Source: Myxococcales bacterium
GTDB lineage: Bacteria; Myxococcota_A; Polyangia; GCA-2747355
Reading direction: 5' to 3'
Assembly: GCA_020431405.1 (NCBI GenBank)
Contig: JAGQIK010000408.1
Coordinates: 1 to 39,756, forward strand
DNA: 39,756 bases
Shown here: piece by piece, positions 325 to 30,907 of the stretch
How positions within the stretch are numbered: the stretch's first letter is position 1
How the letters are laid out: each line of letters begins with the position of its first letter
Position numbers and translations under genes: made by a program
The notes under the pieces: generated by a model
Told to the model about the DNA's origin: nothing
The model's input: only the letters and a program-made list of their open reading frames with translations
The model's database searches: none

Positions 325-1149
325 ATGAGAAAGCTAACCGTTGTCGTCGCACTGCTCTGCTTCGGATCTGTCGCGTTTGCCCAGGGAAAGAAGGGCAAAG
401 CGCCCGCCAAGGGTGGTGACCCGAAGAACGCCCCGCTCTACACGCTCGACACCGAGAAAGCCAAAGACCCACCGGCCGGCTCGGGCCTTGCGGCCATCCT
501 CAAGTCGCACCACGTGCGCGTCTGCGTGCGCTCCGACGTTCCGCCGTTCGGCTACTTCTCGCGCTGGGGCCTCAAGGGGCTCGACATCCAGCTCGCGCGC
601 GCGATCGTCAATCAGCTCAGCATCGACTACAAGGTCGTGCTCGCCGTCGACTGGAGCGTCGTCTCGGCCGGCCGCCGCGTGGCGCGTCTGAAGGCCAAGA
701 GCTGCGATCTGCTCGTCGCGACCTTCTCCAACACCCGCGCGCGCGCGCGTCAGGTCGGCCTCAGCAAGGTCTACCTGCAGACCGACAAGGTCCTGCTCGC
801 CTCCGAGAGCCCCAAGGCCAAGGCGGTCATCGGTCGCGTTCGTGGCACCACCGGCAAGGCCGGCGGCGTCAAGGGCAAGACGCGCTACTTCAACACGTAT
901 CAAGAGATCATCTACGGCATGGAAGCTGGCGACGTTGACTACGTCGTCGCCGACCGCCCCGTGGCCGTGCATCTTCAGCGCAGCGTGAACAAGAAGTTCA
1001 AGATCACCAAGACGCTCGCCAAGAACGCCGAGAACTACTCCATCGGCGTCAACAAGAAGCACAAGGCCCTGCTCGACGCCGTCAACAAAGCTCTGACCGA
1101 TCTGGCCAACAGCGGACAGCTCGCGCTGATGTACCGCCGCTGGCTGTAA
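325..1149 (+). CDS. Periplasmic family-3 solute-binding protein
   Basis: A 274-residue exported protein. Residues 1-20 form a signal peptide (basic MRK, hydrophobic VVVALLCFG, cleavage after AFA-Q), followed by a Lys/Gly-rich linker to about residue 55. From residue 60 the sequence fits the bacterial family-3 extracellular solute-binding fold of ABC amino-acid transporters: VRVCVRSDVPPFGY (65-78), GLDIQLARAI (85-94), CDLLVATFSNT (128-138) and the C-terminal GVNKK...LTDLANSG...YRRWL. The ATG at 325 is chosen because it opens the signal peptide and has AAAGGA 11 bases upstream; ATGs at 313 and 316 are in frame. No permease or ABC ATPase gene follows, so it may be an orphan receptor or sensor. 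Ligand unknown. Confidence 0.85.
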   Translation: MRKLTVVVALLCFGSVAFAQGKKGKAPAKGGDPKNAPLYTLDTEKAKDPPAGSGLAAILKSHHVRVCVRSDVPPFGYFSRWGLKGLDIQLARAIVNQLSIDYKVVLAVDWSVVSAGRRVARLKAKSCDLLVATFSNTRARARQVGLSKVYLQTDKVLLASESPKAKAVIGRVRGTTGKAGGVKGKTRYFNTYQEIIYGMEAGDVDYVVADRPVAVHLQRSVNKKFKITKTLAKNAENYSIGVNKKHKALLDAVNKALTDLANSGQLALMYRRWL

Positions 1150-1178: not shown

Positions 1179-1493
1179 ATGAAAAAGGTGAAGTTGAAGC
1201 GTTCCATCGCCGTCTCGCTGGGCCTGCAGATGCTGCTCGCGTCTGCCGTGTTCGTGGGGGTGATGACGCTCGCGCCCAAGAAGGCAGACGCCTACTGCTA
1301 CACGCGGCGCGTCTGCCACTGGAGCTACGGACGGCGCTACTGCTCGGTCCGTCGCACCTGCACGGGTGGTTACTACACACGTCGCTGCTACTACCGGCGC
1401 CGCTGCTACAACCGCCGCTACTGCTCGTGGCGCTACGGTCACCGTTATTGCTACTGGCGCAGCTACTGCCGGCCCTACCGGGTTTGCTACTAG
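1179..1493 (+). CDS. Small secreted Cys/Tyr/Arg-repeat protein 1
   Basis: A 104-residue protein with a basic, hydrophobic signal peptide (residues 1-38, cleavage near KADA-Y). The mature part is almost entirely Cys, Tyr and Arg: by my count 10 Cys, 16 Tyr and 18 Arg in 66 residues. Cysteines are at 40, 46, 55, 61, 70, 76, 82, 91, 97 and 103, so every spacing is 6 or 9. A strong ribosome-binding site (GGAGGGG, 1165-1171) precedes the ATG; a TTG one codon upstream is ignored. It lies 29 bp after the solute-binding protein gene, probably in the same operon, and has a paralog 267 bp downstream. I recognise no family. A disulphide- or dityrosine-crosslinked surface protein, a cationic peptide, or a modified-peptide precursor are all possible. 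Confidence 0.85.
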   Translation: MKKVKLKRSIAVSLGLQMLLASAVFVGVMTLAPKKADAYCYTRRVCHWSYGRRYCSVRRTCTGGYYTRRCYYRRRCYNRRYCSWRYGHRYCYWRSYCRPYRVCY

Positions 1494-1659
1494 CCGCGCT
1501 GCTTCGGTAGACTGAAGCCGCTATCTTCTTTGCCCCGCACATGATCGCCGGCCGCAGCGCGTTTCGCTCGCGCTGCCGCCGTCTCCTCGCCGCAGGTTGT
1601 TCGCGGCATCGCGCGCTGCTCGCCGCAGCCGCGTTCTAGTACCCAGTCCGGTCGATCGC

Positions 1660-1685
1660 GACGAGCTGCCTGCGCGCAGCTCGTC
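1660..1685. other. Perfect 10-bp inverted repeat
   Basis: GACGAGCTGC (1660-1669) and GCAGCTCGTC (1676-1685) form a perfect 10-bp stem with a 6-base loop, between the two Cys/Tyr/Arg genes. There is no T-run after either arm, so it is not a canonical intrinsic terminator. It could attenuate, stabilise or process the mRNA between the genes. The remaining intergenic sequence (1494-1760) shows no gene. Confidence 0.6.
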
Positions 1686-1760
1686 ACGCTCGCGCGCGCG
1701 CTCGCACCGGACGCAGAAAGTCAGTTGCCCGCTGGTGGCTGGTTGGGAGGTGGACCCGAG

Positions 1761-2069
1761 ATGAACAAGCCGAAGCTAACCCGAACGCTCTCGATCGCCT
1801 TGAGCCTGCAGATGCTGGTCGGCGCCGCCGCCGTCGCCGTGGTGCTCTTCTCGTCGAGCGACGCCGAGGCCTACTGCTACACGCGCCGCCGCTGCTACTA
1901 CCGCTACGGCCGTCGCTACTGCAGCACCTATCGCAGCTGCACCGGCTACCGTCGCCGTCGCTGCTACACCCGCCGCCGCTGCTACCGCCGCCGCTACTGC
2001 CGCTACCGCTACGGACACCGCTACTGCTACTGGCGCAGCTACTGCCGCCCATACCGTCACTGCTACTAG
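1761..2069 (+). CDS. Small secreted Cys/Tyr/Arg-repeat protein 2
   Basis: A 102-residue paralog of the gene at 1179. The signal peptide ends near DAEA-Y (residue 37). The mature part is dominated by Cys, Tyr and Arg, with cysteines at 39, 45, 54, 60, 68, 74, 80, 89, 95 and 101, nearly the same spacing as its paralog. The two proteins share an identical 17-residue C-terminal block, RYGHRYCYWRSYCRPYR, and both end in Cys-Tyr. Conserved cysteine spacing despite other substitutions indicates selection on the pattern. The start is fixed by GGGAGGTGG (1745-1753) before the ATG. Function unknown; extracellular location is inferred from the signal peptide. Confidence 0.85.
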   Translation: MNKPKLTRTLSIALSLQMLVGAAAVAVVLFSSSDAEAYCYTRRRCYYRYGRRYCSTYRSCTGYRRRRCYTRRRCYRRRYCRYRYGHRYCYWRSYCRPYRHCY

Positions 2070-2144: not shown

Positions 2145-2615
2145 ATGAAGCAGAGCGTGGTCGCGATCGTCCTGATTGGCCTCGTGGCGGCGCCTTCGAC
2201 CAACGTCGAAGCGCGCACCATCAAGCGCATCCATGGCGCGATAGCCAAGTCGAGAAAGAAGATCCGCAGCGCCTGCGGCTGCGACGTCTCCTTCCGATAC
2301 AGCAAGCGGCTCGACTTCACCAACGCCTACGGCAGCGACATGATGTACAACATCCAGCGCCAGGTCGAAGACATCGGCAGCGCTGTCGCGCGCTACTGCA
2401 AGAAGGGCGGCCCGTGGAAGGCCAAGCTGTGCCGCCTGGTGCACTCGGTGACGATCTCGGAGACCAAGCTCTCCAACCCCTACACCGAGCATCGCGGCGC
2501 TGACCTCGTAAGCTACGTCTGCACCAAGAACCCCAAGCAGCTGATGCACCACTCGGCGATCTGGCTGCGCCCCTACATGACCACCGGCAAGATGCCGAAG
2601 AAGCCGAGCTCCTAG
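2145..2615 (+). CDS. Small secreted protein, unknown function
   Basis: A 156-residue protein with a signal peptide (MKQSVVAIVLIGLVAAP, cleavage near VEA-R, residue 23). The mature part is basic and has five cysteines (44, 46, 85, 96, 126), including a CGC motif followed by a YSKRLDFTNAYGSDMMYNI segment. The ribosome-binding site GAGAGGAA lies about 8 bases before the ATG. It follows the two Cys/Tyr/Arg genes on the same strand by 75 bp and may be co-expressed. I recognise no family. The odd cysteine number would allow an intermolecular disulphide, for instance with its neighbours, but that is speculation. Confidence 0.75.
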   Translation: MKQSVVAIVLIGLVAAPSTNVEARTIKRIHGAIAKSRKKIRSACGCDVSFRYSKRLDFTNAYGSDMMYNIQRQVEDIGSAVARYCKKGGPWKAKLCRLVHSVTISETKLSNPYTEHRGADLVSYVCTKNPKQLMHHSAIWLRPYMTTGKMPKKPSS

Positions 2616-2632: not shown

Positions 2633-4816
2633 CTAGAGCAGCGTTCGGATCTCTTCGTTGGCCGCCTTGACGCGCGCCGAGAGCAAGCTGATCACGTAGC
2701 GATGTAGCTTGTGCGCCAGCTCGGGGCGCTTTTCTTCGAGCTCGAGCAGCTTGTCGCGCGTCAGGCGACGCAAGGTTGTCTTCTCGTCGGCGACGATCGA
2801 GGCGCTGCGGGTCGCCTCGGTGTAAAAGCCCATCTCGCCGATGATCGTGCCCGGACCGTAGGTGCGCAGGCGCTTGTCTTCGACGGTGCCGTGGGCCGCG
2901 TCGCCGAGCGTCATGTAGATGCTGACGGCGCCTTGATCGACGAACCACATCGTGTCGCCTGCGTCGCCCTGCTTCGCGATGGCCGTGCCGGCGTCGATCT
3001 CGAGCGCCTCGAGGTAGCCCAGCAAGCCGTCGATCTCTTCATCTGAAAAGGAGCTCTTGAGCTCCGAGCGCAGCCCCGGTTTCATCGGCGCCGTCGACGA
3101 CATCAGCATCTGGTTTTCGATCCACTCCATGCCGTGGTCGAGATCGGGGAACGTGCGCACCACCTCGTCGTCGAGTGTGAACTTGGCCTTCTCGAAGACG
3201 TCGCGGATGCCGCTCGGCAGCTCGGTCAGCACCAGCACGACGCCCGCCGCTTCGCACGACTGGCGCAGCTTGGAAAACGACAGCACCGCCGAGACGTCGA
3301 GCCCCTGCACCAGACGAAAGTCGACCAGCACGAAGCGTAGCTCGCCGTCGAGGCGCGCTTTGATCGAATCGAGCACGGCGTTGGAGGTGCCGAAGAAGAT
3401 GAAGCCCTGCAGCGTCAGGCCGTAGACCGAGCCGCCCTTGGCCTTGAGCAGGTTGGTCTCGGCGATAGAGCGCTCGACGTTGGAGAGGTGCTGTTTGCCG
3501 GTGAACGTGTGTTTGACCGGCGTGAGGCGACTGTAGTTGAAGACAAAGAGCAGGCTCGCCACGACGACGCCGAGCAGCACGCCGTAAAGAAAGCCCTGGT
3601 AGGCGATCAGCGCGAGGATCAGCAGCACCAGCACGTACTCGAAGCGCGGCATGCGCTTGAGCGTGCCGCCGACCCACTCGGTGAGCAGGTCGAGCCCGAG
3701 ATAGAGCACCAGGCCGGTGAGCACGGGCCGCGGCAGGTAGCCGAAGGCTTTGGGCACCAGAAACGTCACCGCCAGGCAGACGATGCCCGCCGAGATGCCC
3801 GCCACGCGCGAGGTGGCGCCAGCGCGCAGGTTGAGCAGGCTGCGGCTGATCGACAGGTAGCCGACGATGCCGCCCGCCATGCCGACGGCGACGTTGGCCA
3901 CGCCCGCGGCCTTGAGCTCGCGATCGAAGTCTGCGTCCTCGGCGCTCGCCAGGTCGAGGCCCGTGGCGTTGAGCAAGATCGTGATCGAGACGACCACGGT
4001 CAGCGCCAGCAGCGGCACGGCCTGCGCGGCGAGCACGTGCCACTGCACGTTGCCGAGCGAGATCTGAAACGGCAGCGTGAAGTCTTTCAGGGAGATGGGG
4101 TTGAGCAGCAGGCCTGTCTTGTGCGCCTGCTCGAACGAGACGCCGCTGGCGACCATGCCGGCGAAAAAAAGCGCCGTGGCCACCGCGAGCACGCCGGGGG
4201 CGATGAGAAAGTGCGTGAACTTGCGCTGCAGCACCAGCAGCGTGATCGCCACCAGCACCGTGGGCAGCCACATCAGCAGCGGCAGCTCGGCGAGACGCGA
4301 AAACGAGGTGGGGTCGAGCAGGTGCGCGCCGGACAGCGACTTGACCGCGCCGTCGACGAGCAGATAGCCGGTGCCGGCGAGGAAGCCGCCGATCACGGGG
4401 AACGGGATGAATCGCACGTAGCGGCCGCGCTTGGAGTAGCCGAGCAGAAAGAGGATCACGCCGCAGATGACGCTCGACAGCGCGACGGCCATCAGCACCG
4501 TCGCGATGGTGGCGTCGGCGCCCTGCTTGACGGTCGCCTCGGCGATGGCGCTGACCATCACGGCGAGGATGGCGGTGGCGTTGGAGTCGGGACCGGCGAT
4601 GGCAAACGAGAACGAGCTGGTCAGCGCTACGACGATGGCGACCACGCCGGCGCTGACCAGCGCCGACATCAGACCTGCCGACAGGTGACTGCTCAGCGTC
4701 TGACCGGAGAAGATCAGCGCGCCGTACGAGACCGAGTAGGACAAGCTGACGATGGCGGCCAGCGACCCGGTGACCGGGTTGGCACCCAACCGCTTGGGCT
4801 TCGCAGTCGTCGTCAC
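2633..4816 (-). CDS. SulP/SLC26-type anion transporter with STAS and cNMP-binding domains
   Basis: A 727-residue inner-membrane protein. Residues ~15-430 carry the many membrane segments of a SulP transporter, with the characteristic SSFSFAIAGPDSNATAI stretch early on and GRYVRFIPFPVIGGFLAGTG. Residues ~460-560 form a STAS domain (YGLTLQGFIFFGTSNAVLDSI, VLVDFRLVQGLDVSAV). Residues ~585-727 form a cyclic-nucleotide-binding-like domain with GEMGFYTEATRSAS, matching the phosphate-binding cassette. Family members move sulphate, bicarbonate or other anions; the substrate here cannot be told. The added domain suggests control by a cyclic nucleotide. The start is a GTG without a strong ribosome-binding site, so the N-terminus is less certain. 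It converges on the gene at 2145. Confidence 0.9.
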   Translation of the reverse strand: MTTTAKPKRLGANPVTGSLAAIVSLSYSVSYGALIFSGQTLSSHLSAGLMSALVSAGVVAIVVALTSSFSFAIAGPDSNATAILAVMVSAIAEATVKQGADATIATVLMAVALSSVICGVILFLLGYSKRGRYVRFIPFPVIGGFLAGTGYLLVDGAVKSLSGAHLLDPTSFSRLAELPLLMWLPTVLVAITLLVLQRKFTHFLIAPGVLAVATALFFAGMVASGVSFEQAHKTGLLLNPISLKDFTLPFQISLGNVQWHVLAAQAVPLLALTVVVSITILLNATGLDLASAEDADFDRELKAAGVANVAVGMAGGIVGYLSISRSLLNLRAGATSRVAGISAGIVCLAVTFLVPKAFGYLPRPVLTGLVLYLGLDLLTEWVGGTLKRMPRFEYVLVLLILALIAYQGFLYGVLLGVVVASLLFVFNYSRLTPVKHTFTGKQHLSNVERSIAETNLLKAKGGSVYGLTLQGFIFFGTSNAVLDSIKARLDGELRFVLVDFRLVQGLDVSAVLSFSKLRQSCEAAGVVLVLTELPSGIRDVFEKAKFTLDDEVVRTFPDLDHGMEWIENQMLMSSTAPMKPGLRSELKSSFSDEEIDGLLGYLEALEIDAGTAIAKQGDAGDTMWFVDQGAVSIYMTLGDAAHGTVEDKRLRTYGPGTIIGEMGFYTEATRSASIVADEKTTLRRLTRDKLLELEEKRPELAHKLHRYVISLLSARVKAANEEIRTLL

Positions 4817-13561: not shown

Positions 13562-14791
13562 GTGAGCAGAGACGGCACCAGACTGGCGCGCGCGCTGTTT
13601 GGCTACGTGCTGCTGCTCACGCTGCTGGTCACCTGGGCGCCCTTTCACTTCAACCGCCCGCCGGCGATCGAGCTTCACTGGCGCGCGCCGATCGGCGACG
13701 TGCTGATCAACATCGTGCTCTTCTTCGGGCCAGGCTTTCTGTGGCGCGCCAGCGGCGGGCGCTCGCTGGCGCTCACCGGCATGCTGGGCTTGGCCTTCAG
13801 CGCGCTGATCGAGGCGGTGCAGCTGCTGTCGCCGGTGCGCAGCACGAGCGTCTTCGACGTGGCGGCCAATGGCTTCGGCGCACTGCTCGGCGCGCTGACG
13901 CACCGCGCGCTGCAGGCTCGCATCGACGCGCGTCTGGCTGGCCGCTTGTTGCTCGAGCTGCCGCTGAGCGGGCTGTTCTACTTGCTGACGCTGCTGTTGT
14001 TCGTCGATGGGCTCGCGGTCGCGGGTCAGCCCGAGCGCGCGCCGCTGCTGCCGCTGATCGCGCTTTCGGGCGCGGCGCTGATCGTGCCGCTGTGGCGCGA
14101 CCGCCTCCATCGTGTGCTGTCGCGCGGACGCGTGGCGTTGCTCGCCGCGCTGTGGAGCGCGGTGGCGGCGCTGCCTGCGCTGCTCGTGGCACCGCTGTGG
14201 GGTCTCGGCAGCGCGGCCGCCGTGCTCGTGGTCGTGGCCGTCGCCGCGTCGAGCAGCCGCGTGGCACAGACCGCGCCGGAGCGACGCTTCGAGTGGCGCG
14301 CGCTGGCCTTCGCCAGCTTGCCGTTCGCCGGCTATCTGCTCGCGCTGTCGGCGTGGCCGCTGAGCGCGCCGGCGCCCTTTCGCGTTCGCTTCGGACTGGC
14401 AGATATCGCTGGCCGCGTCCGCGGCGATGTCGGCGAGTGGCCCGAGCTAGCGCACATCCTCGTGGTGCTCGAGCGCGCCGTGGCCGCCACCGTGCTCGGC
14501 TATGGCGTGGCGCAGGCGGCTGGGCGCCGCTTCGGCGAGCGCCCCGCGGCGCTGCTCGGCGTCGTGGCGCTGCTCGGCGCGCTGGCCGCCGCCGCGGGCG
14601 AGGCGCTGCGCGGCGTGCATCCGCACTATCACGCCAGCCTCGTCGCCGGCGCGGTCGCCTTGGCCTGCAGCCTCGTCGGCGCGCTGATCTATCGCGCGCA
14701 GCTCGCCGTCACGATCGCGGCGCTACGATCTGCACCCGATGTGCCTCGCTCGCGTCCGGAGGCTGCCAGCGGCGCAGCAGCCGATCGATGA
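13562..14791 (+). CDS. VanZ-like multi-pass membrane protein
   Basis: A 409-residue hydrophobic protein with roughly ten membrane segments. The N-terminal ~115 residues carry the VanZ-like pattern: TWAPFHFN, GDVLINIVLFFGPGFL, ALIEAVQLLSPVRSTSVFDVAANGFGALLG. The C-terminal part adds further helices without a recognised domain. VanZ-like proteins are loosely linked to teicoplanin resistance, but most members are uncharacterised. The start is a GTG with no good ribosome-binding site. Its 3' end overlaps the convergent HD-Pnk gene by about 80 bp, which is unusual; the last ~30 residues may be poorly constrained. Confidence 0.75.
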   Translation: MSRDGTRLARALFGYVLLLTLLVTWAPFHFNRPPAIELHWRAPIGDVLINIVLFFGPGFLWRASGGRSLALTGMLGLAFSALIEAVQLLSPVRSTSVFDVAANGFGALLGALTHRALQARIDARLAGRLLLELPLSGLFYLLTLLLFVDGLAVAGQPERAPLLPLIALSGAALIVPLWRDRLHRVLSRGRVALLAALWSAVAALPALLVAPLWGLGSAAAVLVVVAVAASSSRVAQTAPERRFEWRALAFASLPFAGYLLALSAWPLSAPAPFRVRFGLADIAGRVRGDVGEWPELAHILVVLERAVAATVLGYGVAQAAGRRFGERPAALLGVVALLGALAAAAGEALRGVHPHYHASLVAGAVALACSLVGALIYRAQLAVTIAALRSAPDVPRSRPEAASGAAADR

Positions 14792-15860
14792 CCGCGTCCG
14801 GGACGGCGCTGCGTCGCGCCTGGTTGCGCGCGCGCAGCGTCGGCTCGTCGACCTCGAGGTAGACGATCTGCACGCGCGCGTCATAGTCGGCGCAGAGCGA
14901 GATCGTCGCGGCGCGCTGCTGGCGCGAGATGTTGGTGGCGTTCCAGACGAAAGCGCGCCCAGCGCGCAGGTGCTCGCGCGCCGCCTCGCGCGCGGCGGCG
15001 ACGACTTTGCCCTGGCTGTCGCTGGGCGACACGCCGAGCTCGGCGCGCAGCGCGTCGAGCGAGATCACGGGCCGACCGGCGCCGTGCTGCGCCACGAAGT
15101 GGTCCTTGCCGGCGCCCGGCAGGCCGCTGAGCAGCGTCACCTCCGGGCGGTCGGGCGCCTCGTAGGGCGCCTGGTCGGGGTCGTCACGCTTTTGCTGGAA
15201 GTAGAGGAAGCGCGCGTGGTCCGAGGCGAAGCCGCGCGGCGCGCGCAGGCAGCCCTCGTCGCGCGCGTACTCGAAAAAGAGCGCGATGTTTTCGAGCAGC
15301 CGCGGCACATCGTGCGCCGTACGGCCGCGCGCGTCGGCCTCGGCGAGCAGCGCGAGGTGATCGCAGCGCGCGCGAAGCGAGATACGCGCGAGCAGTCGGC
15401 GCGGGTGGTCGCGCTCGAGCAGAAAGAACGGCACCTGATGATGCAGCACCAGCGCGCAGAGCGCCTCGCGCCACGCGAACGGCGCGCCGAGGCGCCACAG
15501 CAGCAGGCGCGCCGTCTGTTCGCCGCGCCGCGCGTGTCCGCGCGCCGTCACGCGCTCGCCTTCGCGACGCGTGGTCTCGGGCTTGGCCACGTCGTGCAGC
15601 AGCGCCGCGCCGAAGACCAGCGCGCGCTCGTCGGGCGGCAGCGCGCGCCAGCCGTCGAGCGCGCAGAGCGCCTGGCAGACCATGCGCGTGTGGATCCAGA
15701 CGTCGCCTTCGGGGTGAAACTCGGCGTCCTGCTCGCAGCCGCGCAGCGCGCGGATCCAGCCGTGGCGCGCGTCGAGCGCTTCGAAGTCGAGCGCGAAGTC
15801 GGGCGGCTCGGGACAGCCGAGCTCGCGCGCGATCTGTGCGATGCGCGCGACGTCGGTCAC
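14709..15860 (-). CDS. HD-Pnk: HD phosphoesterase fused to polynucleotide 5'-kinase (RNA end healing)
   Basis: A 383-residue two-domain enzyme. Residues ~45-200 form an HD domain: H57 (WIHTRM), H89-D90 (LLHDVAK), H140-H141, D175. Residues ~240-383 form a P-loop kinase of the polynucleotide-kinase type: GLPGAGKD (246-253), ISLDALR (266-272), VWNATN (305-310) and an Arg-rich lid RARNQARRSAVPDAVIDRL. This order matches the characterised Runella slithyformis HD-Pnk, which removes 2',3'-cyclic, 3'- or 2'-phosphate with the HD module and phosphorylates 5'-OH ends with the kinase. Homologs are often next to an ATP-dependent ligase gene, as here. Its start overlaps the ligase stop by 4 bp. Expected product: 3'-OH/5'-phosphate ends ready for ligation. 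Confidence 0.9.
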   Translation of the reverse strand: MTDVARIAQIARELGCPEPPDFALDFEALDARHGWIRALRGCEQDAEFHPEGDVWIHTRMVCQALCALDGWRALPPDERALVFGAALLHDVAKPETTRREGERVTARGHARRGEQTARLLLWRLGAPFAWREALCALVLHHQVPFFLLERDHPRRLLARISLRARCDHLALLAEADARGRTAHDVPRLLENIALFFEYARDEGCLRAPRGFASDHARFLYFQQKRDDPDQAPYEAPDRPEVTLLSGLPGAGKDHFVAQHGAGRPVISLDALRAELGVSPSDSQGKVVAAAREAAREHLRAGRAFVWNATNISRQQRAATISLCADYDARVQIVYLEVDEPTLRARNQARRSAVPDAVIDRLLRRWQPPDASEAHRVQIVAPRS

Positions 15861-16708
15861 GACGGCTCACTCGGCGCCGGCGTTGGTGGCGTCCCCGACG
15901 GTGGCGGCGCGAAGATGTCGACGCCTTCGGCGAGGCCGTTTTCGATGATCGGCCGCGACAGCCAGTGGCTGCCCGACTGGTCGACTGCCTGCAGGAACGA
16001 CTCGCGGATCAGCTTGTAGCGGCCGATCACAACGCCGTCGCGCTCGTGCTTGAGATAGAGCCCCTCCATCTCGTCACGTGGATCCGTCTCGCGCTGCGCT
16101 CGCTCGCTCGCCACGCCGCTGCGCTCGGCGGCGTAGCCGAGCCGCTCGCGCCACGCGGCGCTCTTGTAGCGCGACGGTCCGATCAGCGCCTGCAGCGCGG
16201 CGGCATCCAGCGGCCGCGATTCCAAATCGACGCGCGCGATGACGGGCACCGAGACGACAGGGGTCGCCGCGAGCAGCGCGTGGCGCGCGTCGGTGTCGAG
16301 AAAGACCGAGCGCTCGCGGTCGAGCAGGTCGAACTCCAAAAAGTAGTGCGGCAGCTGGTCGTAGTAGATCGTGTGCTTGGCGTAGAGCCACTCGCCATAG
16401 AGCGTGTAGCGCTCGCCGAGCAGCGCGGCGAGCGCGGCGCTGTGGCTCGCCGCCCAGCGCTTGTAGAGCGCGAAGTGCTTCTCGCGCGCGCCGCCCGTCA
16501 GGTAGTGGCCGCGCGACTGCAACAGCAGCGTGCCCTGCTCGTCGAGGCGCATGCCAGCGTTGGCGCCGTCGAGCTTCTCCTCGACGACCAGCACGCCGCC
16601 GCGCAGCGTGCCGAGCGGCACCACCTCGAGCCCCTCGTCACCCGGCTGCGCGCGCGATCCCTCGACGTGCTGGGTGCGCGGGTACTTGTCGATCTCGAGC
16701 GCGCTCAT
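15857..16708 (-). CDS. ATP-dependent RNA ligase
   Basis: A 283-residue nucleotidyltransferase with the ordered motifs of covalent ligases: motif I EEKLDG (43-48, Lys45 as the AMP-acceptor), SRGHY (65-69), motif III YGEWLY (104-109), IIIa FLEFDLLD (123-130), motif IV EGLYLK (215-220) and motif V GRYKLIR (229-235). This resembles small RNA ligases (Rnl2/Rnl5-like group) rather than DNA ligases; exact subgroup undecided. No clear C-terminal OB domain, and the tail is Pro-rich. It seals 3'-OH/5'-phosphate ends, exactly those made by the neighbouring HD-Pnk. It overlaps both neighbours by 4 bp (methyltransferase upstream, HD-Pnk downstream), indicating tight co-translation. Confidence 0.9.
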   Translation of the reverse strand: MSALEIDKYPRTQHVEGSRAQPGDEGLEVVPLGTLRGGVLVVEEKLDGANAGMRLDEQGTLLLQSRGHYLTGGAREKHFALYKRWAASHSAALAALLGERYTLYGEWLYAKHTIYYDQLPHYFLEFDLLDRERSVFLDTDARHALLAATPVVSVPVIARVDLESRPLDAAALQALIGPSRYKSAAWRERLGYAAERSGVASERAQRETDPRDEMEGLYLKHERDGVVIGRYKLIRESFLQAVDQSGSHWLSRPIIENGLAEGVDIFAPPPSGTPPTPAPSEPS

Positions 16709-17367
16709 GTGGTGCCCTCGCAGCGTGCCACCGCGACCATGTGGCCGCGCACGAACGTCACGTCGACACGCGCGGCGCCCGCCTCCGCGAGCAGCGACGA
16801 GAGGCTCTCGGCGCTGAAGAGCTGGATGTGCTCGGGGTTGTCGTCGGGCTTGGAAGGCACCGAGGCGACGACGAAGCGTGCGGCCACGCGCACGATCTCG
16901 CGCGCCGCGCGCGCGGGCTCGGGCAGATGCTCGAGCACTTCGAGCGCCGTGACCACGTCGACGCTGTCGTCGGCGAAGGGCAGGGCGCAGACGTTCGCGA
17001 CGAGCCCCGAGAGGCGCACCACGCCGCCGCGGCGCACCGCCTGCACGTCAGCGATGCGGCGCGCGGCGCGATCGATGGCGCACACCTCGAGCTCGGGCTG
17101 CGCCTCGAGCAGCGGCCACAGAAACGTGCCGCGCCCGCAGCCGATGTCGAGCAGGCGCCGCGGCGCGAGCCCACAGACGGTGCCCAGCACGCGGCGCACC
17201 CGCGGAAGCTCGGTGTTGCGCTTGAGCTTGAAGGGCCGCAACCCAGCCGCGCGCGCCCGCGCCACGAGGGTCTCGGCGTCCGCCGGTGGCGCCAGCGCCG
17301 CCTCGCCGAGATGGCCGCGCACGTAGGCCGCGAGCAACACGTCGTAGTAGGTGGTCGATGTCTGCAT
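16705..17367 (-). CDS. Class I SAM-dependent methyltransferase of the RNA-repair cassette
   Basis: A 220-residue methyltransferase, first gene of the ligase/HD-Pnk operon. Motif I is LLDIGCGRG (72-80); the acidic strand-2 residue is in CAIDR (96-100), and a post-motif EVLEHL lies at 143-148. ASVPSKPDDNPEHIQLFS (168-185) contains a His at 180. A basic N-terminal helix (LRPFKLKRNTELPRVRRVLG, 43-62) could contact RNA. EVLEHL plus a later His recalls the Mn ligands (E-x-x-E-H...H) of Hen1 2'-O-methyltransferases, but similar residues occur in many unrelated methyltransferases, so Hen1-type chemistry is only a hypothesis. Start at ATG 17367; an in-frame GTG at 17406 is possible. The 4-bp overlap with the ligase gene argues for a role on the same substrate. 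Confidence 0.82.
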   Translation of the reverse strand: MQTSTTYYDVLLAAYVRGHLGEAALAPPADAETLVARARAAGLRPFKLKRNTELPRVRRVLGTVCGLAPRRLLDIGCGRGTFLWPLLEAQPELEVCAIDRAARRIADVQAVRRGGVVRLSGLVANVCALPFADDSVDVVTALEVLEHLPEPARAAREIVRVAARFVVASVPSKPDDNPEHIQLFSAESLSSLLAEAGAARVDVTFVRGHMVAVARCEGTT

Positions 17368-17384
17368 GGCCGAGGATCGAGACG

Positions 17385-17390
17385 TATAAT
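17385..17390 (+). promoter_or_regulatory. Candidate -10 box in the divergent methyltransferase/protease intergene
   Basis: A perfect TATAAT, in an AT-rich patch (ACGTATAATATGACC) unusual for this GC-rich region, lies 32 bases before the TTG start of the protease gene and 18 bases beyond the methyltransferase start. No convincing -35 hexamer lies 16-18 bases upstream. The near-palindromic AT patch could serve both divergent genes. Confidence 0.4.
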
Positions 17391-17421
17391 ATGACCTCGT
17401 CCTCACCCATCGGAGAGAGCC

Positions 17422-25642: not shown

Positions 25643-28600
25643 ATGGCGCGACGCCAGCGCAGCGGGCGTGCCACCACCATGAGCAGCAGCACGATCTTTC
25701 GCGACCGTTATCGGGTTCTGCGCCGGCTGGGCGCCGGCGGCGGCGGCTCGGTTTACGAGGTCGAGGACATCCGCGCCGCGGGCTCGCCGCGGCTCGCGCT
25801 CAAGGCGCTCTTCGCCGAAGGCGCCGAGACCGCCGAGCTGCTCGGGCTGCTGCGCCAAGAGTTTCGCGTGCTGTCGAGCCTGCGCCACCCGGCCGTGGCG
25901 CGCGTCTATGACTTCGGGCGCTTTCCCCAAGGGAGCGGCCTCGAGGGCAGCGAGGGCGCGCAGGGCTACTACTACACGCGCGACCTCGTCGACGGCGTCG
26001 ACCTCGCCTCGTACTGCGCGGCGCGCCCGCTGGTGGAGACGCTCGAGGTGTTGCACGCCACCACCGAGGCGCTCGACATCCTGCACCGCGCCGGCATGGT
26101 GCACCGCGACTTCAAGCCCGGCAACGTGATCGTCGATCACGAAGGCGGAGCGCACCTCATCGACTTCGGACTGGCCCACGGCGAAGGCCAACGCACGCCC
26201 ACCAGCGGCACGGCGGCCTACCTCGCGCCCGAGATGCTGCGTGGTCACCGCGTCGATCGCCGCGCCGATCTTTACGCGCTCGGCATCACGCTCTACGAGC
26301 TGGTGCGCGGCGAGCCACCGCTTCCCGGCGCGTCGCTGTCGCGCTTGGTGGTGTGGCACCTCGACGGACCGGAGCTCGACTTCGAGGGCGTGGCCGGTGT
26401 GCCCGAGCGCCTGAGCGAGATCTGTCGCCGCTTGACCAGCCGCGACCCGGAAGCGCGCTTTCCCAGCGCCGGCGAGCTGGCCCTCGCGCTCGCAGAGGTG
26501 ATCGTGGAGCTCGGCGGCAAGCGCCCCGACGAGGTGTCGCCCTTCGTCGCGCCGGCGGTCGGCGACCGTCTCGGCCCACCGCTGTCCGAGCTGGAAAACG
26601 CCGTGCGCAGCGCCCTCGAAGGCAAAGGGCCCAAAGTCGCCACGGCCTGCGGCGATCCCGGCAGCGGCCGTTCGACGCTGCTGCGCCAACTGACCTGGCG
26701 CCTGCAGCTCGCCGACATCGAGGTGGTCAGCGGCGAGTTTCAGGCCGGCGATCTACGCCCCTACGGTGTGATCGGCGACCTGCTGGCGCAGCTGGCGAGC
26801 TTCGCCGACCGCCCCAATCCGCTGCGCGACATCGGCGAGAGCGCCGCAGTCGATCGCTTCGCGTTGTATCAGCAGATCACCGAGTACCTCGTCGACATGG
26901 CGAGCCACGTGCCCGTGACGCTGGTGCTCGACGGGCTCGAGGCCGCCGACGACGAGAGCCGCGCGGCGCTGCGATTCGTCGCGCACGTGCTCGATGCCAA
27001 CGATCGCGTTTGCCTCGTCGTCTCGCACGACGGCCACTCGGCCATCGAGGAGCTGTTCGATGATCCGCGCGAGGTCACGCTCGCGCCGCTCGACGGCGAC
27101 GACGTCTCGCGCATGCTCAAGGACGCCTCGGGGCGCAGCGACGAGCGCCTCGCTGGCCGCATCGTCGAGCACACCGGCGGCAACGCGGCTTTCGTCGTCG
27201 ACGTCTTGCGTCGCCTGCACGAAGCCAACTGGCCGGCGAGCCCCGACCTCGAGGCGCTGGCGCCGCCGCAGGCGCTCGAGTCGCGCGTCGCCGAGCGCTA
27301 CGCCGAGCTCGCGCAGGACGAGCGCATCGTGCTCGAGACGCTCGCCGTCGTCGGTCGTCCGGCGCGCGGTCTCGAGCTGCTCGAGCTGGTGCAGACGGTG
27401 GACGGCGAAGACCGCGTGGGTCTGCCGCTCGAGCGCCTCGAAGCGCTGGGCTGGATTTCGCGCAACACCGAGGGTGCCTGGTCGTACCTGCAGGGGCCGG
27501 CGCGGCACGCGATCTATCGCGTCATCGACACCGAGCGCCGTCGCGCGCTGCACCTGGCGGCCGCGCGTCGGCTGCAAGATGCTGGCGACGAGCGCGCCGA
27601 CATCGAGCGCACCCGCCACGCGCTGGCCGCCGGTGAGCTCGAGATGGCGCGCAGGTCGCTGCAGCAGGCCACCGCCGCGCTCGAAGCGCTCGGCTCGCAT
27701 CGGCAGGCCATCGGCCTGTGCGAGCACGCCCTCGAGCTGGCCAGCGACGGGCGCGAGCGGCGTGCGCTGCTCTTGCGGTTGGGGCGCCTCTACCGCATCG
27801 TCGGTGACACCGATCGCGCCATCACACTGCTCGAGCAGGCCAGCGAGCGGGTCGACGGCGATGGGGGCAGCGACGACGATGGCGGCGAACGGCGCGCCGT
27901 CCGTCTCGAGCTGGCGCGCACGCACACCGCTGCCGTGCGCGGCGAGCACGCGCTCGAGGTCCTCGCTGCGCTCGACGCCGACGCCCAGAGCGACGCCGAG
28001 CGTCTCGAGGTCGCCGTGCTGCGCGCTGCCGCCGTGGCGAGCCTGCACGATCTCGAGCGGCTGCTGCGCGTCGCCGACGAGGGCCTCGCGATCGAGGCGC
28101 GCCTGGCGGCCATCGGCCAGCCCGACGCCAGCGCGCGCGCCGGGCTCGGCGGCCGCAAGGCCTGGTCGTTGGCGCACCTGGCGCGCTACGAAGAAGCTGA
28201 CGGCGTCGTCGCCACCGCGCTCGACGCCGCGCGCTCGGCTCAAGACAAGCGTGTCGAGGCCGAGCTGCTCAACACCTGGGCCGTGCTCGCGCAGCGCGCC
28301 GGCAAGTACGCCATCATCGCCGATCGCCAGCGCCACGCCCTGGCGGCGATGCAGGAGCTCGGTGACGTCGGCCGCGTCGCGGCGTTTCGCGTCAACATCG
28401 GCGCCGTGCACCTGCAGCGCGGCGAGCTCGGCTCCGCGCTCGATCACTTGCAGCAGAGCCTGCGGCTCTTCGAGGCCATGGGTTCGCCCACCACGGCGCT
28501 GGTGCGCTGCAACCTCGGCTACGTGCAGCTGCAGATCGGCCTTTACGAGCGCGCGCGCGTGACGCTCGAGCGCGCCCGCGAACAGAACGTCGCCGCCAAG

Positions 28601-30907
28601 CGGCACAGCGGCGAGGCGCTGGCGCGGCTGCTGCTCGCGATCCTCGCGGGACGGCGCGGCGACATGGAGCGCGCGCGCAGCGAGATCGCCTGGGCGCGCG
28701 ACGCCTACGTCAAACAGGGTCAGAATCGCGACGCCGCCGACGCGCAGGTCGATCTCGCCGAGCTCGAGCTGCGTGCCGGCAACGTGGACGCGGCCGCGCG
28801 CGCACTGGCCACCGCGCGTAGCGAGCTCGACCTCGCCGAGGTCGACGATCTGCTCGTACGCGTCTCCGCGCTCGACGCGCGGCTCGCCGCCGCCGGCGAC
28901 AGTGGTGAAGCTCACGCCGAGGCGCTCTCGGCGATCGAGCGCGCCATCGAGAAGGCGCGCGCGCTCGACACGCTCGAGCTGTCGTGGCAGTGCAATGCCG
29001 CCGCCGCGACGCTCTCGGCCAAGGCGAGCAATGGCATGCTCGCCGCGCAGCGCGCTCGCGCGGCGATGGAGGTGCTGCGGCGCATGGCGCAGGGCTTTTC
29101 GCCCGACCAGCAGACGGCCTTCTGGCAGGACCCGTGGCGGCGCGAGGTGCGCGAGCGTGCGGGCTCGCAGGTGCTCGACCAAGCGGCAGCGACGATCTCG
29201 TCGACAGGCTCGCTGCCGGGCACGGTGGTCGCCGCCGCGCTCGACGAGACGATGCCCTCGTCGTCGTACAAGGACATCGTGCGCGCGGCGCAGGAGCGCC
29301 ACTACCGGCTGCTCGAGATCTATCGCCGCATCAACGCGGAGCTCGATCCAGAGCGGCTGCTTGGCCTGGTGATGGATACCGCCGTCGAGTTGACCGGCGC
29401 CGAGCGAGGCTTCTTGTTGCTCGGCGACCGGCCGGAGAGCCTCGAGGTCAAGATCGCGCGCAACCTCGATCCCGAGCGCAGCAGCGCCGCCTACAGTCGC
29501 TCCATCGCCGAGCAGGTGCACGCCATCGGCGAGCCGGTGGTCACGATCTCGGCGCACAGCGATCCACGCTTCTCCGAGTACGCCAGCGTGCACCAGCTGC
29601 AGCTCGAATCGGTGTGCTGCATCCCGATCCACGCCCACGGCCGCATCGCCGGCGTGCTCTACATGGAGAGCCGCTTCAAGTCGGGGCGCTTCACGCCCGA
29701 CGATCAGCGCCTGCTGATGGCCTTCGGCGATCAGGTCGCTATCGCGCTGACCAACGCGCAGCTGATGGCGGAAAACCAGCGCAAGGCAGAAGCGCTAGAG
29801 GCAGCCAAGCGCGAGATCGAGGCGCTCGCCGACGAGCGTGGGCGCCTGTTGCAAGAGCGCACCGAGCAGCTGCACGAGGTGCAACGTGATCTGGCCGAGA
29901 CGCGCGCGCGCCTCGAGCCGCGCGCCGGGCAGTTCGGCATGGTCGGCCGCTCGGCGGCGATGGCGAAGGTCTTCAACCTCGTCGAGCGCGTGTCGGGCGC
30001 CGACGTACCAGTGTTGATCGAAGGCGAGTCGGGTACCGGCAAGGAGATGGTGGCACGCGCGATCCACGAGCAGAGCCCGCGTCACAAGAAGCGACTGGTC
30101 TCCGTCAACTGCGCCGCGATCCCCGAGAACCTGCTCGAGAGCGAGCTGTTCGGTCACGTGCGCGGCGCCTTCACCGGCGCCGACCGCGAGCGCAAAGGGC
30201 TCTTCCAAGCCGCCGACGGGGGCACGCTGTTTCTCGACGAGATCAGCGACATGCCGTCACGCATGCAGGTCGATCTGCTGCGCGCGCTGCAGGAGCACAC
30301 CATTCGCCCGGTGGGCGGCCAGAAGGATGTCAAGGTCGACGTGCGCGTCATCGCAGCGGCCAACCGCCCGCTGTCGGCGCTCGTCGAGCGCGGCGAGTTT
30401 CGCGAGGACCTGTTCTATCGACTGCACGTGGTGCGGCTCGCGCTGCCGGCGCTGCGCGAGCGTCCCGATGATATCCCGCTGCTGGTCGACCACTTCCTCG
30501 GCGTGATCGCCGAGCGCATGCACATGCCCAAGCGCGGCATCACCAAGGCCGCGCTGCGGCGGCTGATGAGCTACGGCTGGCCAGGCAACGTGCGCCAGCT
30601 CGAGCACGCGTTGATGAACGCGGTGGTGTTGGCCGACGGCGAGGTGCTGCACGAAGACGACTTCTCGCTCGAGTCGCCGCGCGGCACCGGCGAGCACGCG
30701 GCCGTGCCGTCTGGCAGCGGCGCCTTCGATGGCGACGGCGGCTCGCGCGCGGCCGCGGCCAGCGAGAGCGATCGCGAGGCCGAAGAGCGCGAGCGCATCA
30801 TGGAGGCGCTGGAGCGCTGCAACTGGAACAAGAGCAAGGCGGCGCGCGTGCTGGGCATTCCGCGGCGCACGTTCTACCGGCGTTTGCGCGCGTACGATAT
30901 CCAGTAG
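25643..30907 (+). CDS. Kinase-ATPase-TPR-GAF-sigma54 activator mosaic protein
   Basis: A 1754-residue cytoplasmic regulator. In order: Ser/Thr kinase domain (~22-290; Lys54 in LALKAL, HRDFKPGN 154-161, DFG 174-176, LAPEM 194-198); a signalling ATPase domain (~305-600) whose Walker A reads GDPGSGRST (337-345) with Arg in place of the usual Lys; TPR-type helices (~610-1180); a GAF domain (~1220-1370); a coiled coil (~1385-1425); a sigma54-interacting AAA+ domain (~1430-1670; GESGTGKE, GAFTGA, intact); and a Fis-type HTH (~1718-1754, NWNKSKAARVLGIPRRTFYRRL). It should couple phosphorylation and ligand sensing to transcription from sigma54 promoters. The first ATG is used; ATG 25679 is equally likely, and neither has a clear ribosome-binding site. 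Confidence 0.92.
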   Translation: MARRQRSGRATTMSSSTIFRDRYRVLRRLGAGGGGSVYEVEDIRAAGSPRLALKALFAEGAETAELLGLLRQEFRVLSSLRHPAVARVYDFGRFPQGSGLEGSEGAQGYYYTRDLVDGVDLASYCAARPLVETLEVLHATTEALDILHRAGMVHRDFKPGNVIVDHEGGAHLIDFGLAHGEGQRTPTSGTAAYLAPEMLRGHRVDRRADLYALGITLYELVRGEPPLPGASLSRLVVWHLDGPELDFEGVAGVPERLSEICRRLTSRDPEARFPSAGELALALAEVIVELGGKRPDEVSPFVAPAVGDRLGPPLSELENAVRSALEGKGPKVATACGDPGSGRSTLLRQLTWRLQLADIEVVSGEFQAGDLRPYGVIGDLLAQLASFADRPNPLRDIGESAAVDRFALYQQITEYLVDMASHVPVTLVLDGLEAADDESRAALRFVAHVLDANDRVCLVVSHDGHSAIEELFDDPREVTLAPLDGDDVSRMLKDASGRSDERLAGRIVEHTGGNAAFVVDVLRRLHEANWPASPDLEALAPPQALESRVAERYAELAQDERIVLETLAVVGRPARGLELLELVQTVDGEDRVGLPLERLEALGWISRNTEGAWSYLQGPARHAIYRVIDTERRRALHLAAARRLQDAGDERADIERTRHALAAGELEMARRSLQQATAALEALGSHRQAIGLCEHALELASDGRERRALLLRLGRLYRIVGDTDRAITLLEQASERVDGDGGSDDDGGERRAVRLELARTHTAAVRGEHALEVLAALDADAQSDAERLEVAVLRAAAVASLHDLERLLRVADEGLAIEARLAAIGQPDASARAGLGGRKAWSLAHLARYEEADGVVATALDAARSAQDKRVEAELLNTWAVLAQRAGKYAIIADRQRHALAAMQELGDVGRVAAFRVNIGAVHLQRGELGSALDHLQQSLRLFEAMGSPTTALVRCNLGYVQLQIGLYERARVTLERAREQNVAAKRHSGEALARLLLAILAGRRGDMERARSEIAWARDAYVKQGQNRDAADAQVDLAELELRAGNVDAAARALATARSELDLAEVDDLLVRVSALDARLAAAGDSGEAHAEALSAIERAIEKARALDTLELSWQCNAAAATLSAKASNGMLAAQRARAAMEVLRRMAQGFSPDQQTAFWQDPWRREVRERAGSQVLDQAAATISSTGSLPGTVVAAALDETMPSSSYKDIVRAAQERHYRLLEIYRRINAELDPERLLGLVMDTAVELTGAERGFLLLGDRPESLEVKIARNLDPERSSAAYSRSIAEQVHAIGEPVVTISAHSDPRFSEYASVHQLQLESVCCIPIHAHGRIAGVLYMESRFKSGRFTPDDQRLLMAFGDQVAIALTNAQLMAENQRKAEALEAAKREIEALADERGRLLQERTEQLHEVQRDLAETRARLEPRAGQFGMVGRSAAMAKVFNLVERVSGADVPVLIEGESGTGKEMVARAIHEQSPRHKKRLVSVNCAAIPENLLESELFGHVRGAFTGADRERKGLFQAADGGTLFLDEISDMPSRMQVDLLRALQEHTIRPVGGQKDVKVDVRVIAAANRPLSALVERGEFREDLFYRLHVVRLALPALRERPDDIPLLVDHFLGVIAERMHMPKRGITKAALRRLMSYGWPGNVRQLEHALMNAVVLADGEVLHEDDFSLESPRGTGEHAAVPSGSGAFDGDGGSRAAAASESDREAEERERIMEALERCNWNKSKAARVLGIPRRTFYRRLRAYDIQ

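What the first reader, a model, noticed from the sequence alone, without database searches (positions are those of the whole stretch)
1179..2069. Tandem pair of secreted Cys/Tyr/Arg proteins with a strict cysteine rhythm
Two exported ~65-residue proteins are about two-thirds Cys, Tyr and Arg. Ten cysteines each fall at spacings of 6 or 9 (one spacing is 8), conserved between the paralogs, and both end in an identical 17-residue block plus Cys-Tyr. I know no family like this. The pattern suggests a repeat fold, a disulphide/dityrosine-crosslinked coat, a cationic antimicrobial or DNA/polyanion-binding protein, or a peptide that is modified.
Basis: seen in the sequence. Interest (0 to 1): 0.78.

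Follow-up and report, generated by a model that had tools for sequence, protein, structure and literature searches.

The report
Bacterial secreted cystine-ladder hairpin proteins
Two small exported bacterial proteins, made mostly of cysteine, tyrosine and arginine, look like miniature ladders: each is predicted to fold into two hairpins whose cysteines face each other as rungs, a design reported so far as antimicrobial hairpin peptides only in animals and plants.

Summary
In detail: two signal-peptide proteins (1179-1493 and 1761-2069, + strand), mature 66 and 65 residues, 10 Cys each. The spacing is not a linear repeat; it is mirror-symmetric. Cys 1-4 (6-9-6) and Cys 5-10 (6-6-9-6-6) are each centred on a Tyr-Gly turn. 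AlphaFold models of both copies give two beta-hairpins with turns exactly there, so all ten Cys fall opposite one another as 2+3 rungs of a 'cystine ladder'. The same arithmetic holds in a diverged paralog (35% identical) and in a homolog from another family of the class, although linkers and composition differ. A further paralog has 12 Cys in one perfect mirror series (6-4-8-8-10-[9]-10-8-8-4-6), a predicted six-rung hairpin. No Pfam, NCBIfam or PDB relative was found. In both genomes with the gene, an orphan amino-acid-type substrate-binding protein (54-55% identical) lies directly upstream; in the other genome the stop and start codons overlap. Nothing else in 318 class and 379 phylum genomes clearly carries it. 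The fold is well supported but predicted. The function, a cationic hairpin acting on anionic membranes or polymers, is inferred from likeness to tachyplesin and theta-defensin. A coat protein remains possible.

The parts
325..1149 (+). orphan substrate-binding protein (SBP_bac_3, polar amino-acid type), 274 aa, first gene of the pair (ATG at 313 or 316 also possible)
   Evidence: Pfam PF00497 E 1.2e-22; TIGR01096 Lys/Arg/Orn-binding 6.3e-23 but far below its cut-off; PDB best AncQR 4zv1; ortholog directly upstream of the homolog in G254, 54-55% identity
1179..1493 (+). cystine-ladder protein A (104 aa precursor, 66 aa mature)
   Evidence: RBS 1165-1171; 29 nt after the SBP stop
1179..1292 (+). 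signal peptide of A, predicted by eye (cleavage after ADA)
   Evidence: sequence
1296..1361 (+). A, hairpin 1: C-x5-C-x8-C-x5-C around Tyr-Gly, 2 predicted rungs (C1-C4, C2-C3)
   Evidence: AlphaFold strands 2-11/14-23; spacing 6-9-6
1386..1487 (+). A, hairpin 2: 6-6-9-6-6 around Tyr-Gly, 3 predicted rungs (C5-C10, C6-C9, C7-C8)
   Evidence: AlphaFold strands 32-47/50-65
1761..2069 (+). cystine-ladder protein B (102 aa precursor, 65 aa mature), tandem paralog of A (65% identical over the precursor)
1761..1871 (+). signal peptide of B, predicted by eye (cleavage after AEA)
   Evidence: sequence
1875..1940 (+). B, hairpin 1, 2 predicted rungs
   Evidence: AlphaFold strands 2-11/14-23
1962..2063 (+). 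B, hairpin 2, 3 predicted rungs
   Evidence: AlphaFold strands 31-46/49-64
2145..2615 (+). small exported protein of unknown family (156 aa) 75 nt downstream; possible but unproven third member of the operon
   Evidence: no match in 18 other relatives

Best explanation
A and B are exported, strongly cationic 'cystine-ladder' proteins. Each mature chain folds into two long beta-hairpins with Tyr-Gly turns. Every Cys sits directly across from a partner on the other strand: C1-C4 and C2-C3 in hairpin 1; C5-C10, C6-C9 and C7-C8 in hairpin 2. Disulphides therefore replace a hydrophobic core (predicted fold, likelihood about 0.8). On the strands Tyr lies mostly on the face away from the cysteines and Arg on both faces. 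The most likely job is to bind and disturb anionic material outside the cell (LPS, membranes, nucleic acid or matrix), in the manner of the arginine-rich beta-hairpin defence peptides, here made by a bacterium (inferred, about 0.4). The upstream orphan amino-acid-binding protein is a conserved operon partner; that it scavenges or senses amino acids under the same conditions is a guess.
For: Shown: frames, signal-like N-termini and 10-Cys mirror spacing. Shown: mirror symmetry kept in four proteins at down to 35-37% identity although linker (x5 to x9) and turn (x8 to x10) lengths differ. Shown: the own-genome paralog on C467 has 12 Cys in a perfect mirror series, 0 of 300,000 random placements; it matches B at E 1.4e-6. 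Empirical control: among 1109 reading-frame segments with 6 or more Cys in 527 kb, only family members and two others have a 3-rung mirror series, and only C467 exceeds 3. Predicted separately for both copies: two hairpins, turn at the Cys symmetry axis (pLDDT 76 and 77.5). Mature net charge +18 and +23 (Arg+Lys minus Asp+Glu), no Asp or Glu. Gene pair with the SBP conserved in two families of the class; TGATG overlap in G254.
Against: The models rest on two-sequence alignments; pTM is 0.30, so the relative placement of the two hairpins is unknown, and no scrambled control could be run. With equal spacings mirror symmetry is partly automatic (random P about 6-9e-4 for two palindromes). The G254 homolog has net charge only +7 and few Tyr, so strong cationicity is not a fixed trait. 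A fifth, weaker relative (C587) has 9 Cys and one asymmetric arm. No antimicrobial activity is shown, no transport, immunity or processing gene was found, and free periplasmic export of a membrane-active peptide would endanger its maker.
Confidence: 0.6

Rival explanations
1. Structural coat or matrix protein: the chains are cross-linked to each other by disulphides and perhaps dityrosines into a resistant surface, fruiting-body or spore layer.
For: Extreme Cys/Tyr content, tandem copies, several paralogs per genome; no obvious enzyme or immunity gene.
Against: All Cys are placed to pair within the chain and the mirror symmetry is kept in diverged copies, which cross-linking would not require; the G254 homolog has only 4 Tyr; no peroxidase or oxidase recognised nearby.
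Confidence: 0.22
2. Accessory or partner of the orphan amino-acid-binding protein: the ladder is a periplasmic docking or regulatory piece for the SBP rather than an independent effector.
For: SBP and ladder gene adjoin in the only two genomes found to hold either one; stop/start overlap in G254.
Against: No SBP was seen beside the paralogs on C485, C467 and C587 in the stretches read; the C485 copy instead follows a triple-parvulin lipoprotein.
Confidence: 0.2
3. Cys-rich metal-binding (metallothionein-like) secreted protein.
For: Ten Cys in 65 residues.
Against: No CxC or CxxC pairs, which such proteins typically use; spacing of 6 or more throughout; predicted export to an oxidising compartment.
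Confidence: 0.04
4. Low-complexity artefact: GC-rich repeats that happen to be open and drift.
For: Short tandem repeats, mostly of 12-21 nt, overlap the genes.
Against: Synonymous bias between paralogs, RBS and signal peptides, conserved Cys frame and conserved gene order in another family of the class.
Confidence: 0.02

Closest known systems
Disulphide-stabilised beta-hairpin antimicrobial peptides (tachyplesin, protegrin, gomesin, androctonin)
   Same: antiparallel hairpin, nested cross-strand disulphides, Arg-rich, cationic, aromatic
   Different: those are 11-25 aa single hairpins with charge +1 to +8 and, per PMC13001179, described only in animals and plants; here 65 aa, two hairpins, +7 to +23, bacterial, activity unknown
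theta-defensins (cyclic cystine ladder) and hepcidins
   Same: three or more stacked disulphides in one hairpin
   Different: theta-defensins are 18-residue head-to-tail cycles; no cyclisation signal was seen here, Cys are 6 apart, and one paralog is predicted to have six rungs
SBP_bac_3 amino-acid-binding proteins (ArtJ, LAO/Arg, AncQR)
   Same: upstream gene has the fold by homology; in the alignment to AncQR the T-x-x-R and the later Asp are kept
   Different: no permease or ATPase gene beside it in either genome; below every NCBIfam cut-off

Membership tests
beta-hairpin antimicrobial peptides (definition of PMC13001179) | hairpin closed by cross-strand disulphide(s) | tested here: inconclusive
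   predicted in both copies and by mirror spacing; bonds not measured
beta-hairpin antimicrobial peptides (definition of PMC13001179) | single hairpin, 11-25 residues | tested here: not met
   two predicted hairpins in 65-66 residues unless cleaved further
beta-hairpin antimicrobial peptides (definition of PMC13001179) | net charge +1 to +8, Arg preferred over Lys | tested here: not met
   charge +18 / +23 in A and B (G254 homolog +7); Arg preference is met
beta-hairpin antimicrobial peptides (definition of PMC13001179) | antimicrobial or membrane activity | not testable with these tools
   needs the peptide
theta-defensins / cyclic cystine ladder | head-to-tail macrocycle of 18 residues with three rungs | tested here: not met
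   65-residue linear precursor with signal peptide and stop directly after Cys-Tyr; no ligase recognised near it
SBP_bac_3 (upstream gene) | matches PF00497 above its cut-off | tested here: met
   80.6 bits against 26.4
Lys/Arg/Orn-binding protein TIGR01096 (upstream gene) | score above curated cut-off | tested here: not met
   81.6 against 256.35 bits
any Pfam, NCBIfam or PDB family (ladder proteins) | significant profile or sequence match | tested here: not met
   Foldseek best E 5.1

The most novel reading that the evidence does not exclude
A bacterial family of linear cystine-ladder proteins in which the number of rungs per hairpin varies (2, 3 and, in one paralog, 6) and evolution keeps the mirror symmetry of the cysteines rather than the sequence; if antimicrobial, these would be the first natural bacterial counterparts of a peptide class so far reported only from animals and plants.
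Probability: 0.45. Interest if true: 0.75.

Novelty: new variant of a known kind. Interest (0 to 1): 0.6.

Why it matters
Long, rung-by-rung disulphide ladders are rare in nature. A genetically encoded bacterial family with two, three and apparently six rungs would be a natural scaffold for very stable beta-ribbons, and a test of how a periplasm sorts 10-12 nested cysteines. If membrane-active, it would extend beta-hairpin defence peptides to bacteria. The mirror-spacing rule gives a simple, sequence-independent way to search for more.

Tried and rejected
A scan for close relatives found none in GTDB genome contigs or viral contigs; a scan for the SBP profile also failed there, probably because its patterns were too strict. 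No relatives in plasmids or, with the G254 homolog as query, in phages. The Cys spacing pattern alone in viral contigs returns mostly trivial Cys repeats, not secreted homologs. Weak class and phylum profile hits around E 1e-4 to 1e-2 were inspected; the open frames there were unrelated Cys-rich frames or noise. The 6-9-6 pattern with a Tyr/Phe-Gly centre hits G000 only in A and B, and G254 once in its ladder gene; elsewhere hits are sparse, as for the reversed control. Foldseek against PDB gave nothing. Rfam found no RNA element. No tyrosine/thiol-oxidising or RiPP-type enzyme was recognised among the neighbours scanned. A look for the third gene in 18 other relatives found it only here. Paper searches found no description of such a family.

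Full report
What was checked. The two frames exist exactly as described: A 1179-1493 and B 1761-2069 on the + strand, each with a Shine-Dalgarno-like GGAGG, a charged and hydrophobic signal-like N-terminus and an AxA site directly before Tyr-Cys. Mature chains are 66 and 65 residues; Cys, Tyr and Arg make up 67% and 78%; neither has an acidic residue; net charge, counted as Arg+Lys minus Asp+Glu, is +18 and +23. The paralogs differ most at third codon positions (29/20/37), with dN/dS about 0.4. Six spacings of exactly 6 did not arise in 50,000 random placements of the cysteines.

What the rhythm is. The spacings 6-9-6 | linker | 6-6-9-6-6 are two mirror-symmetric series, each centred on C-xxx-YG-xxx-C. 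In A, positions 2, 8, 17, 23 sum pairwise to 25, and 32, 38, 44, 53, 59, 65 sum pairwise to 97. Even spacing puts residues of a beta-strand on the same face, and equal distance from a two-residue turn puts them opposite each other. AlphaFold2, run on A and then on B with only the pair as alignment, gives strands 2-11/14-23 and 32-47/50-65 for A, and 2-11/14-23 and 31-46/49-64 for B, so both turns fall exactly on the Cys symmetry axes (pLDDT 76 and 77.5, pTM 0.30). The prediction is therefore a double hairpin with 2 + 3 disulphide rungs, the two hairpins not fixed relative to each other. Composition favours strand over helix. In copies A and B, Tyr in the scored arm positions is mostly on the face away from Cys (7 of 8 and 9 of 9 by the listed counts).

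Relatives. In the same genome (an 11.2 Mb assembly) three more proteins were found. On C485, 101 aa, spacing 6-9-6-10-6-6-11-6-6, about 35% identical in the mature part: same 2+3 mirror scheme with a longer linker and turn. On C467, 128 aa, 12 Cys with spacing 6-4-8-8-10-[9]-10-8-8-4-6: one perfect mirror series around C-RYS-FG-RRY-C, hence a predicted six-rung hairpin; not reached in 300,000 random placements; similar to B at E 1.4e-6, though biased composition weakens that value. On C587, a looser relative with 9 Cys, arms 6-10-6 and 5-9-6. In another family of the class, genome G254 holds one homolog (E 2.9e-7 with a three-sequence profile made before it was known) with spacing 6-9-6-6-6-6-9-6-6, but only 4 Tyr, 10 Arg/Lys and net +7. 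So the cysteine mirror, not the Tyr/Arg richness, is the conserved trait. As a control, 1109 reading-frame segments with at least six Cys in 527 kb of fetched genome loci contain a mirror series of three or more rungs only in family members and two others, and of more than three only in C467.

Neighbourhood. Upstream of A lies a substrate-binding protein of the SBP_bac_3 family (325-1149), 29 nt before A. In G254 the ortholog (54-55% identical) lies directly upstream of the homolog with overlapping stop and start (TGATG). Searching 318 genomes of the class and 379 sampled across the phylum (the two sets overlap) found this SBP only in these two genomes, and clear ladder proteins only in these two as well. 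No permease gene was seen beside either SBP. Its nearest solved relatives are AncQR, a further amino-acid ABC-transporter binding protein (3vv5) and ArtJ, and in the alignment to AncQR the T-x-x-R and the later Asp are kept, so it probably still binds an amino acid (inference). Other neighbours are not shared (rsgA upstream in G254; a SulP/STAS/cNMP transporter downstream here). The C485 paralog follows a lipoprotein with three parvulin domains at a gap of about 15 nt.

How it probably works. Shown: coding, mirror spacing, homologs, gene pairing. Predicted: hairpins and pairing. Inferred: Sec export and oxidation in the periplasm, then binding of anionic polymers or membranes. The inference rests on likeness to arginine-rich, disulphide-stabilised hairpin peptides; tachyplesin, for one, binds endotoxin, membranes and DNA (PMC4410394). 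A 2026 review describes that class as single hairpins of 11-25 residues with charge +1 to +8 and says they are known only from animals and plants (PMC13001179). A and B fail that description on length, hairpin number and charge, so I do not file them there. They may work alike; that is untested. A cross-linked coat, or a partner role for the SBP, are the serious rivals.

Limits. There is no transcript or peptide evidence; the organism is known only as an unnamed assembly, which looks like a myxobacterium-type bacterium from its gene content (inference). The fold rests on shallow alignments without a scrambled control. The per-protein random probabilities for two-palindrome spacing (6-9e-4) are modest because they count any two palindromes, and equal arms make symmetry easier; the case rests on the C467 series, on the diverged members, and on the match between turn and symmetry axis.

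Noticed in passing
L232 197-583 (G000:C467:45996-46382; same protein in L004): 12-Cys exported Arg-rich protein with perfectly mirror-symmetric Cys spacing 6-4-8-8-10-9-10-8-8-4-6; predicted six-rung hairpin.
   Followed up: partly
L231 2523-2876 (-), G000:C587: Exported 9-Cys protein with C-TYRYGRSH-C core, likely a degenerate relative of the ladder proteins.
   Followed up: partly
L003 164-1752 (G000:C485): Lipoprotein with three parvulin (PPIase) domains directly upstream of the C485 ladder paralog, about 15 nt apart.
   Followed up: partly
window 14709-17406: RNA ligase (PF09414) beside an HD plus AAA_33 kinase-like protein and a third frame: looks like an RNA-repair cassette.
   Followed up: no
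window 25643-30907: 1754-aa protein joining a Ser/Thr kinase, an AAA ATPase domain, TPRs, GAF, sigma-54 activator and Fis-type HTH.
   Followed up: no
window 2633-4816 (-): SulP sulfate-permease-like transporter with STAS and cyclic-nucleotide-binding domains in one chain.
   Followed up: no
L196 and L112 (viral contigs): Frames of about 300-365 aa with Cys every 6 residues for long runs (CSFGES.., CEGNLY..), perhaps a Cys-lined repeat fold.
   Followed up: no
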